Shown here one piece after another: positions 16,233 through 51,764 of a DNA stretch of 64,000 nt (its first letter is position 1; every line of letters begins with the position of its first letter). Under the pieces are notes generated by a model that saw only the letters and a program-made list of their open reading frames with translations, did no database searches and had not been told where the DNA came from. Location: contig OX485807.1 in assembly GCA_950295325.1 (NCBI GenBank), forward strand, positions 28,491,666-28,555,665, given 5' to 3'. Both the position numbers and the translations under genes were made by a program. The DNA comes from Polytrichum commune. Lineage: Eukaryota; Streptophyta; Polytrichopsida; Polytrichales; Polytrichaceae.

Positions 16233-16302
16233 TATGTAGAGACTTATGTAATTAGGTGGGTAGACCTAATGTAGTTTATGACATATCCAAGTGTGAAATG
16301 TA

Positions 16303-16694
16303 CAGTAACCTCCCGCTTAAGTACGTAACTTGAACTTGTGCAGTTTGTGCGTACTTAGCTGGTAGGTGCATACTTTAGAAATGTTGGTTTAGAAAACGAA
16401 GTTATATTCCAGGGTTTTGACTATGTTTATAAGCATGTTGTCAACATCGAAGATCAGCTACTCTACCCTAAAGTTCAAGCAGAAGCATATGAAACATTCG
16501 ATGACCTTAAGAAATCGTTTGAATCATTTCAGAGCAAGATCCGAGCGGTCGGCCTCAAAGCCAAATGCAAAAAACTTCAAAACTTACGCCAAATGACGAT
16601 TCATGACATGTTCAACTAATAAACCTTGAAGCCTAATTTTTTTGCCAAAAAAATGCGTACTTAAACGGGTGCGTACTTAAGCGGGACGTGACTG
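16303..16694 (+). mobile_element. pogo/Tigger-type element, copy A
   Basis: Begins CAGTAACCTCCCGCTTAAG and ends with its inverse, GCGGGACGTGACTG, flanked by TA. The neighbouring tandem units show the empty site GAAATGTACATG, so the TA duplication is confirmed internally. CAGT...ACTG termini with TA targets are typical of pogo/Tigger elements. It encodes the small conserved frame at 16386-16619. Confidence 0.9.
16386..16619 (+). CDS. small pogo-element protein, start-less copy
   Basis: An open frame of 77 codons beginning GLENEVIFQGFDYVYKHVVN and ending MTIHDMFN-stop, with no ATG because the 5' part of the element is deleted. Residues ENEVIFQGF, IEDQLL, ETFDDLKKSFESFQSK and LQNL.QMTIHDM are shared with the copies at 48598-48837 and 51111-51375. 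The sequence looks helical with possible coiled-coil character (alternating hydrophobic residues with many K, E and Q). No domain recognised. It could be the surviving C-terminal part of a pogo transposase or an independent element protein. Confidence 0.55.
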   Translation, partial: GLENEVIFQGFDYVYKHVVNIEDQLLYPKVQAEAYETFDDLKKSFESFQSKIRAVGLKAKCKKLQNLRQMTIHDMFN

Positions 16695-17557
16695 TACATG
16701 CTTGAAAGAAGATTGTTATAGGTCATTTGTACATTTTGCAAGCTCGGTGAGTTTGAGTTTCATTTGAGCTTCATATGGATATGATCAAAACAACTTCTTT
16801 GCTTGCATCATGCCACAAGGTAGTATGTAGACCTATGTAAGGTGGGTACACCTAATGTGGATAGTGGACACATTAAGGTTTCTAACTCGCACATACAATT
16901 CCAAGCGTGAAATGTACATGTCTAAAATAAGATCGTTACATGTCATCTATAAGTTTTGCAAGCTCAAGGAGCTGAGTTTTATTTAAGCTTAATATGCATA
17001 TGATCAAATCAAGGCCATCAACTTCTTTGCTTGCATCATGCCCCAAGGTAGTATGTAGACCTATGTAAGGTGGGTACACCTAATGTGGATAGCGACATGT
17101 TATGGTTTCTAACTCGTATGTACATTTCCTAGCGTGAAATGTACATGTTAGACATAAAATCTCAATAAGTCATCTTAAAGTTTAGAAGCTCAATGAGTTG
17201 AATTTTAATTCAGCTTCACATGGATATGACCACATTAAAGGCATGAACTCCTTTCTTTGTATTTATGCCACGGTAGTATGTAAACTTATGTAAGGTGGGT
17301 ATACCTAATGATGACAATGACATATCTTGATTTCTAACCTCTATGGACATATCCAAGCTTGAAATGTACATGTTTTTTAAAAAATGAATAAATAAAAATT
17401 AGGTCATTCATAAGTTTTGTAGGTTAAGTAAGTTAAGTTTCATTGGACCTTCATATGGATATGATCGAATTAAAGCCATGGACTTCTTTGACTGCATTCA
17501 TGCCAAGAGGTATGTAAACTCATGTAAGGTGGGTACACCTAAAGTAGACAACTACAT

Positions 17558-48520: not shown

Positions 48521-48523
48521 GTA

Positions 48524-48960
48524 CAGTAGCCTCCCGCCTAAGTACGCACCCGTTTAAGTACGCATTATTTTCCTAAAAAAATAGGGTTCAGATTTATTTA
48601 GTTCAACATGTCATGGATTGTCATTTGGCACAAGTTTTGAAGATTCATGCGTTTGGCTTTCAAGGTGACATCCCGGACCTTACTTTGAAACGATTCAAAC
48701 AACTTTCTAAGATCATCGAATGTTTCCTCAGCCTCTTCTCGAACTTCGGAGCAGAGCAACTGATCCTCTATATCAACCACTTGCTTATAAAGTGACTCGA
48801 ATCCCTTAAATACAACGGTGTTTCCTAATCGACTCATTGAGGCGTTTCCCGTTCGGTTTCTTCGACATTGCAGCCGAATCAAGCGATCATGAACCCTAAA
48901 CCCTAAAGTGCCGCACAATCCTCCCAGGTTCAAGTTGCGTACTTAGGTGGGAGGCTACTG
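48524..48960 (-). mobile_element. pogo/Tigger-type element, copy B (437 bp)
   Basis: CAGTAGCCTCCCGCCTAAG...TACGCACCCGTTTAAGTACG on one side and inverse TACTTAGGTGGGAGGCTACTG on the other, TA on both flanks (48522-48523 and 48961-48962). It encodes a small frame on the minus strand, preceded by a CCCTAAACCCTAAA telobox-like pair in its 5' region. Confidence 0.92.
48598..48837 (-). CDS. small conserved protein of pogo-type element
   Basis: 79 codons from ATG (MSRLGNTVVFKGFESLYKQ...) to MTIHDMLN-stop, with an upstream in-frame extension to 48933. Aligned by hand with the copy at 16386-16619, 46 codons differ and about 20 of these are synonymous, more than expected for drift, which suggests past selection on the protein. 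The sequence is charged and helical, with the conserved core EETFDDL.K.FESFQSK and a basic helix LKAK...LQNLCQ. A second upstream ATG (MSKKPNGKRLN...) matches the N-terminus of copy C but is out of frame here by an indel. Role unknown; candidates are an accessory or DNA-binding protein of the element, or a remnant of a longer transposase. Confidence 0.6.
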   Translation of the reverse strand: MSRLGNTVVFKGFESLYKQVVDIEDQLLCSEVREEAEETFDDLRKLFESFQSKVRDVTLKAKRMNLQNLCQMTIHDMLN

Positions 48961-49066
48961 TACTTTGGCGTTGGCATGTCGGCCTTCTATCTAAATAAAT
49001 AAATAAATAAAAAACAAACAAACAAAACAAACAGAGGATCAGAGTAAATTTAATGGCAGATTCACA

Positions 49067-49264
49067 TTAGGCATGGTGAATCATTCCAGCATCCACCTTC
49101 TCGGTGTTTCGTGAAATGTCCCTACACACATTAATGGTAGCTTCATCCTGATGGCTTATGCCATAGTCGATCTTCCCCGTGACAGTTCGTTTCTTGTCAT
49201 CCTTGAACGTCCATGGCAGTGTGTATGTTTGACAAAGTTTTTGCAAGTTTTTCACTTTTGACAT
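49067..49264 (-). CDS. possible terminal coding exon, unknown protein
   Basis: 65 codons ending ...CRDISRNTEKVDAGMIHHA-stop and including YTLPWTFKDDKKRTVTGKID. The residues look protein-like and hydrophilic, and no repeat partner was seen in the window. There is no recognised family. The start codon lies inside a 10-bp-stem palindrome (GCAAGTTTTT/AAAAACTTGC, about 49240-49280), so the true 5' boundary is unclear. Low confidence. Confidence 0.22.
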   Translation of the reverse strand: MSKVKNLQKLCQTYTLPWTFKDDKKRTVTGKIDYGISHQDEATINVCRDISRNTEKVDAGMIHHA

Positions 49265-49993
49265 GCAAAAACTTGCACAAATTTGTTTATTAGATATAAA
49301 AAATGCACATCAATTGACACGCACAATTTAGAAGTTGACACGTACTGTGACTTGTGAAGAAAAATCACTCATGTCAATTGACACACTGAAAATTGAAATG
49401 ACATGTATTACTAGGCAACTTACATACTATAAACTACAACTCAAGTATTCGGAAAACATATCCCATAATAGTAGGGGAGCTCTCTACACTCACTTACATA
49501 CTTAAGTTCAACCTTGTTCTTGTAATATCCTTTGTAACCAAGAAGGCTCCACAACTGAGACGGTGATAAGAGAGGTGGTGGAGGCTACGTATAAGGATGA
49601 CAAGACCACTGTTCTTGGTCCCTTGTGGATGTATTTCCATGATTTTTTTGTGCAAGTATGTGAATGAACAATTTGTCCCAACAGATCTCGAAGAGTGATG
49701 CTTTGGCTGGTTAAATATTGGGATAATTATGAGGCGTCTCAGCTTGACACTGGGATGGTTTGGGGGTAGACTTTGCATAGTGCATAGATCCCCTTCAAAT
49801 TGAGTTTAATGTACAGTGTACAATGTACAATTCATAATGCTTGAATTGAAGTTAGATTGGAAGCAATATTGTTGTTGGGTTCATGATTTGAATGCCATTA
49901 GCGTTCACAAGTCCCTAAAGTTCGTCACGTACTCTAAGCTAGCGGTAGATAATTCACTCTCACCAGTGGCATCGCCTACATCTGTGATAGATA

Positions 49994-50401
49994 CACGGGT
50001 AGATCACTTCATTGTCAAGTTGAACACCACGTGCGACCAAAAAAAATCTTCTTTTGGTAAGTTGCACCACCAAAATGGGTCAAAATTTTATCAAATTTTT
50101 TTCATGAGTAGATATACACAGTACCTATGACATAGTTAAAAGTGGTAACTAAATTTGATGATTTGATTTTTTCATAAAACATATCATTTCTAACTAGAAT
50201 GACACAAAATTGAACTAAAACAATTACTAAAAAATAAAGATGACTAAAATTTTCAAAAAAGTATACAAAAGATATTATCAATGGTTATGTATATGTAGAA
50301 AAAATATCATAAATTTTAAAATTATATATGGCATGTAATATAGGGGTAGCAAACTTTGTCCGCACGTGGTGTCAACTTGACAATGAAGTGACCTCCCCGT
50401 G
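49994..50401. mobile_element. hAT-type MITE copy 2 (408 bp)
   Basis: Nearly identical to 31449-31859. 8-bp duplication GATAGATA at 49986-49993 and 50402-50409, with the uninterrupted site visible in the neighbouring tandem unit (CTAGATACTCTGTTTTGGTC). Confidence 0.95.
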
Positions 50402-51019
50402 GATAGATACTTTTGTATGGTCAATTCCTAAGTCACTTAATTTGAAGTTTTGAAAATGGGAGGAGATCTAGAGTGCTTTGTTCAATTAAAAATTGGGGAA
50501 AGTAGCCATCTTAGCTCATAATGATTTGAATTTTGAGGTTTTGCATAGTGTAGAGATCCCCTTCAATTGAGTTTATTATACAATGTAAAATTCTCATTGA
50601 TTCAATGCAATGCTTGAGTTGATGTTAGATTGGAATCATTAGTGTTGTTGAGGATGTGAGTGGAATGTTATTAGTGTTCACAAGGCCTTGAAGTTCACCC
50701 CCTAAATATGTCCCGGTATCTAGGATAATGGTAGATATTCCACTATTACCGGTGGTACCATCTACATTCTTGCTAGATACTCTGTTTTGGTCAATTCCCA
50801 CCTAGTCCAATCTTTAGTTATTTAGGTTGATTAGTTGTCTCAGCTTGACATGATGATATGAGGTGGTAGACTTGCACAGTGCATGATCCCTTTCAATTGA
50901 GTTCAATGTATGATGTGAAAATCATACTGCTTCAATACAATGCTTGAATTGAAGTTCAAGGGATCACGTAGGATATGAAGAAAGAGGAGTCGTATGATTC
51001 TATCAGAGGGGGGAGAGTA

Positions 51020-51551
51020 CAGTAACCTCCCACTTAAGTACGCACCCATTTAAGTACGCATCCTGGTTAAGTACGCAATTTTTGGCAAAAAAATTAGGAT
51101 TCAAGATTTATTAGTTGAACATGTCGTGAATCGTCATTTGGCATAAGTTTTGAAGTTTTTTTGCATTTGGCTTTGAGGTTGACCGCTCGGATCTTGCTCT
51201 AAAATGATTCAAACGATTTCTTAACGTCATCGAATGTTTCCTCTGCTTCTGCTTGAACTTTAGGGTAGAGCAACTGATCCTTGATCTCAAAAACCTGCTC
51301 ATAAAGAGAGTCAAAACCTTGGAATATAACTTCGTTTTCTAAATTGAGATGCTTTCGATTGGGTTTCTTCGACATTGCAGTGAAACACAAGCGATTTGGG
51401 AAACCCTAAACTCTAAAGTACGCACGTACTGGCTATAGCGAAACACAAGCGATAGCGATTTGGAAACCCTAAACCCTAAAGTACGCACCTACTAGATAAG
51501 TACGCACAAACTGCGCAGGTTCAAGTTGCGCACTTAAGCGGGAGGTTACTG
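51020..51551 (-). mobile_element. pogo/Tigger-type element, copy C (532 bp)
   Basis: CAGTAACCTCCCACTTAAG at one end and inverse CTTAAGCGGGAGGTTACTG at the other, TA on both sides (51018-51019 and 51552-51553). Longest of the three copies; the 5' region of its minus-strand frame has a doubled GCACGTACT/TAAACCCTAAAG segment. Confidence 0.92.
51111..51375 (-). pseudogene. small pogo-element protein, broken copy
   Basis: Starts MSKKPNRKHLNLENEVIFQG and runs 58 codons to a TAG that replaces the CAG (Gln) of the other copies. The rest (SKIRAVNLKAK...MTIHDMFN) continues, but an extra A in an A-run shifts the frame. This copy shows the likely N-terminus of the family, giving ~87 residues in total. 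Confidence 0.65.
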
Positions 51552-51764
51552 TAGTAGTTGTGCACTTGGGTATGATATTGGACTTTTATCAATGTTCATA
51601 AGGCCCTGAAGTTCGTCACCTGATCCGTCCCAATGTCTAAGATGTTGGGAGATATTTCACTCTCACCAGTTTTACCCTCTACACCTATGGTAGATATTTT
51701 GTTGGGTCAATGACTAACTACATATTGTATAAAGTAGTATATACTATTAAACATATTAGTCAAA

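What the first reader, a model, noticed from the sequence alone, without database searches (positions are those of the whole stretch)
48524..51551. Small protein shared by three short pogo-type elements, with signs of past selection
Three elements (16303-16694, 48524-48960, 51020-51551) have pogo-type CAGT...ACTG ends, TA targets and lengths of only 392-532 bp, too short for a DDE transposase. All carry the same ~80-90 residue frame ending MTIHDM(F/L)N. Copies A and B are open over the shared part and differ at 46 codons, about 20 of them synonymous (hand count). That is more silent change than random drift gives, so the protein was probably under constraint. A short TIR transposon that keeps its own tiny non-transposase protein would be unusual. 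The plainer alternative is that this is the C-terminal end of a longer transposase kept in internally deleted copies.
Basis: partly seen in the sequence, partly recalled or inferred. Interest (0 to 1): 0.78.

Follow-up and report, generated by a model that had tools for sequence, protein, structure and literature searches.

The report
Cut-down copies of pogo-type transposon
The three short elements are ordinary cut-down leftovers of a known kind of jumping gene, and the small "protein" they share is just the tail of the missing enzyme, conserved because of what it did in the full-length element.

Summary
All three elements are where stated, with CAGT...ACTG-type ends and TA targets. Copies A and B differ at 45 of 76 codons, 20 of them silent, dN/dS 0.15.

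The same genome holds a 2,065-bp element with the same ends, and the frame is the C-terminus of its DDE_1 transposase (88% identical to B's, 70% to A's). Other related transposases end alike.

The short copies are internal deletions, with about 10 junction classes in the B lineage alone. The selection signal lies between transposase lineages. Within subfamilies, changes fit a neutral expectation: 145 missense, 73 silent, 16 stop, against 153, 67 and 13. A subfamily with a shared in-frame stop in 23 of 23 copies read still multiplied. Other derivatives with the same ends lost nearly all of the frame, and some kept the N-terminal piece instead.

This is a Lemi-like pogo element with MITE-like derivatives: a new member of a known kind.

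The parts
16303..16694 (+). Element A: 392-bp internal-deletion derivative; matches 5' bases 1-77 and 3' bases about 1741-2040 of the full-length element, then a diverged right TIR
   Evidence: TA on both sides
16386..16619 (+). C-terminal transposase remnant in A, open, ends ...RQMTIHDMFN stop; no in-frame ATG before the last nine codons
   Evidence: 70% identity to residues 298-374 of the 374-aa ORF
48524..48960 (-). Element B: 437-bp internal-deletion derivative, junction about 304|1744 of the full-length element; its two main pieces are each 92% identical to it
   Evidence: TA on both sides
48598..48852 (-). C-terminal transposase remnant in B, open, ends ...CQMTIHDMLN stop; the native ATG upstream is in another frame
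   Evidence: 88% identity to residues 291-374
51020..51551 (-). Element C: 532-bp internal-deletion derivative, right-hand match starts at about 1743, left-hand match ends at about 280-299
   Evidence: TA on both sides
51111..51345 (-). C-terminal transposase remnant in C, broken by a TAG and a 1-base insertion
16301..16322 (+). TA + left TIR of A
16675..16696 (-). right TIR of A + TA
48522..48543 (+). TA + left TIR of B
48941..48962 (-). right TIR of B + TA
51018..51039 (+). TA + left TIR of C
51532..51553 (-). right TIR of C + TA

Best explanation
A, B and C are non-autonomous, MITE-like internal-deletion derivatives of a Lemi-like pogo transposon. Shown: the shared 76-codon frame is the C-terminus of a DDE_1 (30 residues between the last two D) transposase present in the same genome inside a 2,065-bp element with the same ends; the short copies match its two ends and lack its middle; different subfamilies have different junctions; changes within subfamilies fit neutral drift; one amplified subfamily carries shared stop codons; other derivatives with the same ends have lost nearly all of the frame. 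Inferred: the deletions arose during failed repair after excision; the derivatives multiplied because a full-length element's transposase recognised their TIRs (and perhaps subterminal repeats) in trans; the low dN/dS between A and B was accumulated in two separate transposase lineages before each was deleted.
For: Full-length element L021 763-2827: TIR 20/20, TA on both sides. HTH_Tnp_Tc5 38.0 bits in the N-terminal ORF, DDE_1 120.5 bits in the second; the DDE_1 stretch and the frame lie in one uninterrupted 374-aa ORF. Two-piece matches of the short copies to the two ends of this element. ORFs of three other relatives carry RQMTLHDMFKK and RQMTLHDMFKQ at the end, or RQMTVFDFM 10 residues before it. 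Pattern of changes within subfamilies. Subfamily D with one stop in 23 of 23 and a second in 21 of 23 copies read. Of 25 short elements paired by exact TIRs alone, from the first 100 ends that one search listed, 4 have no frame hit; these 4 keep only about the last 10-26 codons. L083, L086, L087, L088 and L090 keep the N-terminal piece and only about the last 10 codons; L089 keeps the N-terminal piece and the last 40 codons.
Against: No intact autonomous copy of this family was found: L021 has its two ORFs in different frames and ATA where the short copies have the ATG. No full-length parent of the A/C/D lineage was seen (best full-length match to A is L021, 70% over the frame), and the genome search scores only the best candidates. 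Plain pairwise dN/dS within subfamilies is below 1 (A 0.45, B 0.70, C 0.60, D 0.34); I explain this by the excess of G>A and C>T changes, using an expectation built from the same changes, which is a weak control. In D, silent changes (27) exceed the expectation (20.3) although its copies share a stop codon. 21 of the 25 TIR-paired short elements keep at least 40 codons of the frame; I attribute this to a few amplified founders, not to need, without a formal test.
Confidence: 0.96

Rival explanations
1. The short elements encode a functional small protein (for example a repressor or clamp-binding helper made of the transposase tail) that is kept by selection.
For: A versus B dN/dS 0.15, and ratios of 0.34-0.70 within subfamilies; A and B are open; about 10 distinct B-lineage junctions keep roughly the last 68 codons or more; the tail ends in a motif resembling a PCNA-interacting box (QMTIHDMF), a feature reported for pogo, Tigger and Lemi1 (PMC5371812, passages seen).
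Against: Changes within subfamilies fit a spectrum-based neutral expectation. In-frame stops in 2 of 5 A, 9 of 30 B, 5 of 8 C and 23 of 23 D copies read. No common start codon among A, B, C. Derivatives that lost nearly all of the frame exist.
Confidence: 0.02
2. The 3' third (not its protein) is kept because it carries cis-acting DNA needed for efficient transposition.
For: Right-hand breakpoints of 8 of about 10 B-lineage junction classes lie between 1701 and 1768 of the full-length element.
Against: Elements that keep only about the last 120 bp (L083, L086, L087, L088, L090) or 150-170 bp (L082, L085) match both ends of the full-length element; for L082-L085 both ends with TA are exact. The copies are not independent.
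Confidence: 0.1
3. A separate, unrelated transposon family has captured a host gene fragment that happens to resemble the transposase tail.
For: None beyond the short length.
Against: Both ends, the subterminal part and the tail match one and the same 2,065-bp element in order.
Confidence: 0.005

Closest known systems
Lemi family of pogo transposons (land plants), with Emigrant MITEs of Arabidopsis as the classic derivatives
   Same: HTH_Tnp_Tc5 + DDE_1, and 30 residues between the last two D (Lemi: DD29-42D, PMC7386202, passages seen); short derivatives with the same TIRs. CAGT ends and TA target of Emigrant/Lemi1 are recalled, not from a call.
   Different: No direct sequence comparison with Lemi1 could be run here, so the placement in Lemi rests on domain make-up and spacing.
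Internal deletions of Lemi elements (Negoua et al. 2013; seen only as a reference-list entry in PMC7325037)
   Same: The title describes the same phenomenon.
   Different: Not read; details cannot be compared.
[quoted passage not shown] seen only as a reference-list entry in PMC12595863)
   Same: The title describes pogo-derived MITEs in a plant.
   Different: Not read; whether coding remnants are kept there could not be checked.

Membership tests
pogo superfamily, Lemi family (full-length element L021) | TA target-site duplication and short TIRs | tested here: met
   TA both sides, TIR 20/20 (that this defines pogo is recalled)
pogo superfamily, Lemi family (full-length element L021) | DDE_1 catalytic domain with 29-42 residues between the last two D | tested here: met
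   DDE_1 120.5 bits; 30 residues; range from PMC7386202 passages
pogo superfamily, Lemi family (full-length element L021) | DNA-binding part: HTH_Tnp_Tc5 alone or with HTH_ABP1_N | tested here: met
   HTH_Tnp_Tc5 38.0 bits over cut-off 22.2; CENP-B_N, which PMC7386202 gives for Tigger and pogoR, matches below its cut-off (18.4 of 21.2 bits)
pogo superfamily, Lemi family (full-length element L021) | Falls in the Lemi clade of a transposase tree | not testable with these tools
   no named plant Lemi transposase was at hand to build the tree
MITE-like internal-deletion derivative (A, B, C) | Short, same TIRs and TSD as a full-length element, collinear with its two ends | tested here: met
MITE-like internal-deletion derivative (A, B, C) | Multiple copies sharing one deletion junction (amplified after deletion) | tested here: met
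   A class 5 of 5; 344|1768 class 16 of 30 B-lineage copies; B's own class (about 304|1744) also L002 and L005; C class 7 of 8 (right end 1743)
MITE-like internal-deletion derivative (A, B, C) | No functional coding capacity | tested here: inconclusive
   sequence evidence points that way; expression was not tested
PCNA-interacting (PIP) box at the transposase C-terminus | Qxx[ILM]xxF[FY] | tested here: not met
   QMTIHDMF, QMTIHDML, QMTLHDMF and QMTVFDFM each miss at least one position; consensus as quoted in PMC5371812

The most novel reading that the evidence does not exclude
In the stop-free B-lineage copies the retained tail is expressed as a small protein with a degenerate clamp-binding motif that competes with, or assists, the full-length transposase at replication forks, so that at least some MITE founders spread better for keeping it.
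Probability: 0.02. Interest if true: 0.55.

Novelty: new member of a known kind. Interest (0 to 1): 0.1.

Why it matters
It closes the question posed: a low dN/dS between two short elements does not show that the short elements need a protein, since the constraint can be inherited from the parent transposase. The family is a clear worked example: a near-complete parent, many junctions, apparently neutral drift afterwards, a stop-bearing subfamily that multiplied, and sister derivatives that kept the other end of the gene.

Tried and rejected
Rejected: independent small protein; captured host gene. Not resolved: whether the crowding of right-hand breakpoints (B lineage, 1701-1768) is more than founder effects and similar repair-tract lengths; no formal test was run. 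Led nowhere: Pfam on the remnant frames alone (no family at E up to 1 for B; for A only MTR4-like_stalk at 14.9 bits, below its cut-off 24.2). dN/dS of the full-length frame against L076 and L077 is saturated at silent sites (pS 0.79-0.98, so the printed 0.00 is not an estimate); between L076 and L077 it is 0.75 overall and 0.57 over the tail, so these two copies look mostly neutral since they parted. Literature: four searches; the two works closest by title were seen only as reference entries.

Limits: the genome search scores only the best candidates, so copy numbers are lower bounds. The 66 copies of the codon analysis (5 A, 30 B, 8 C, 23 D) are a hand-picked part of the rows, all found through the tail or through the whole of B, hence biased to copies that keep it; none of the 66 was dropped. 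Group C is mixed: L067 has another junction and L069 carries both stops of D. The TIR-only set (26 pairs, one full-length) comes from the first 100 listed of 473 end matches, exact ends only. Junction coordinates are ends of blastn matches to L021, approximate for A, C and D. The first 9 codons were left out of the within- and between-subfamily counts because junctions fall there in the B lineage. In one search the program found no pair of ends for 15 loci (L010, L040, many D copies and others; several stretches were cut too short), and its pairs for L005, L009, L011-L020, L076, L077 and L079 are not real ends; some copies, such as L048 and L052, lack TA on one or both sides. L009-L020 (cut out) were not used further. 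TSDs of L086-L090 were not checked.

Full report
What was checked. The three elements are real and exactly placed: 16303-16694, 48524-48960 and 51020-51551, each with TA on both sides and 18-19 of 20 complementary terminal bases. A scan of the window finds these six ends and no others at up to 4 mismatches. The 22-base end occurs 473 times genome-wide at up to one mismatch; its reversed control occurs 0 times.

The codon count. Over 76 codons A and B differ at 45, 20 of them synonymous; dN/dS is 0.15 (NG86). C is broken by a TAG and one inserted base. The three copies share no initiator: A has no in-frame ATG before the last nine codons, B's native ATG is in another frame, C's is in frame.

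The parent. Among the listed rows, a DDE_1 search of the genome and a search with B's frame meet at one place, G000:C1:61204159-61205232, in one open frame of 374 aa. The stretch (L021) holds a 2,065-bp element (L021 763-2827) with TIRs matching 20 of 20 and TA flanks. Its N-terminal ORF has HTH_Tnp_Tc5 (38.0 bits; CENP-B_N is below cut-off), its second ORF DDE_1 (120.5 bits), with 30 residues between the second and third D. The second ORF ends with the frame of the finding: its residues 291-374 are 88% identical to B's, residues 298-374 70% identical to A's. The copy is broken: the two ORFs are in different frames, and ATA stands where the short copies have ATG. Three further relatives were found by similarity to this ORF: L076 (59% identity; also in the DDE_1 list), L077 (58%) and L078 (37%). 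Their ORFs end RQMTLHDMFKK, RQMTLHDMFKQ and RQMTVFDFMRKSNRSGKFS, so this is the usual C-terminus. A fourth, L079, matches to the same end with four stops.

The deletions. Aligned to this element, the short copies consist of its two ends. B has junction 304|1744. Other B-lineage copies have 344|1768 (16 of 30), 311|1748, 314|1758, 313|1705, 367|1752, 329|1765, 259|1724, 279|1579 and 288|1662. The A class has 77|1741 (5 of 5), C about 299|1743, and a class here called D about 391|1741. These are ends of blastn matches and approximate for the more diverged A, C and D. A, C and D are close to one another (window A versus window C: pS 0.14, dN/dS 0.51) and far from B (pS about 0.6), so there were two old transposase lineages; a full-length relative close enough to be the parent was found only for B's.

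Where the selection was. Between B and the A, C and D groups pooled dN/dS is 0.10-0.12; within A, B, C and D it is 0.45, 0.70, 0.60 and 0.34. The values within groups are below 1, which taken plainly speaks for some constraint. But the changes are mostly G>A and C>T, which are more often silent. Against an expectation built from the observed spectrum (itself taken from the same changes, so a weak control), the 234 distinct minority changes in 66 copies are 145 missense, 73 silent and 16 stop, with 153.0, 67.1 and 13.3 expected. D alone has 39, 27 and 5 against 46.4, 20.3 and 3.8, the largest departure. Yet D cannot make the protein: one stop is in 23 of 23 copies read and a second in 21 of 23. 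In-frame stops also occur in 9 of 30 B, 2 of 5 A and 5 of 8 C copies, and all 8 C-group copies carry inserted bases in the alignment. The low A-B ratio is therefore best dated to the transposase lineages, not to the short elements.

Is the tail needed? Copies found through the tail are biased to keep it, so I paired ends by TIR alone. The first 100 listed exact ends give 26 pairs under 4 kb: one full-length and 25 short. Of the 25, 21 have a frame hit or 16 and 4 do not. The four (L082-L085) keep only about the last 10-26 codons; L083 keeps the N-terminal piece instead (matches to 534, then from 1945). A search with the 5' 304 bp led to five more that keep the N-terminal piece: L086 and L087 (464|1943) and L088 and L090 (553|1948) with about the last 10 codons, and L089 (480|1852) with the last 40. 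Which piece of the gene survives is thus variable, although most TIR-paired copies listed do keep the tail.

How it works. Shown: non-autonomous derivatives of a pogo-type element, amplified after deletion. Inferred: deletion during failed repair after excision; mobilisation in trans by a full-length element. Known background: PMC7386202 (passages) reports one small clade of pogo elements in land plants, Lemi, in 23 eudicot species, with DD29-42D and HTH_Tnp_Tc5. The review PMC12595863 (passages) describes MITEs as relying on autonomous counterparts and gives mPing as a case of origin by internal deletion. PMC5371812 (passages) reports a PCNA-interacting box in pogo, Tigger and Lemi1. The tail motif here, QMTIHDM(F/L), resembles that box but does not meet its consensus.

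Verdict. New member of a known kind, low interest.

Noticed in passing
window 49991-50404: Another MITE-like structure between B and C: inverted arms of 33 nt (91% complementary, 348 nt apart) and 18 nt (89%, 313 nt apart).
   Followed up: no
L091 1103-3131 (G000:C3), L092, L093: A second, different pogo-like family (ends CAGTCTAACCTTGATAAT, TA flanks in L091) looks recently active: two copies 98% identical over 2,059 bp and a third 99% over 1,441 bp. In one search, 21 of 150 listed DDE_1 matches have a 397-aa frame without stop like that of L091; only L091-L093 were compared. The ORF of L091 holds QCDIRSFF near its C-terminus, which fits the PCNA-box consensus quoted in PMC5371812.
   Followed up: partly
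L021 824-1018: Five tandem 39-bp subterminal units that contain TTTAGGGTTTAGGG (plant telomere-like, recalled) and GTGCGYACTTT, which echoes the TIR; the number seems to vary among derivatives.
   Followed up: no
[quoted passage not shown]
   Followed up: no
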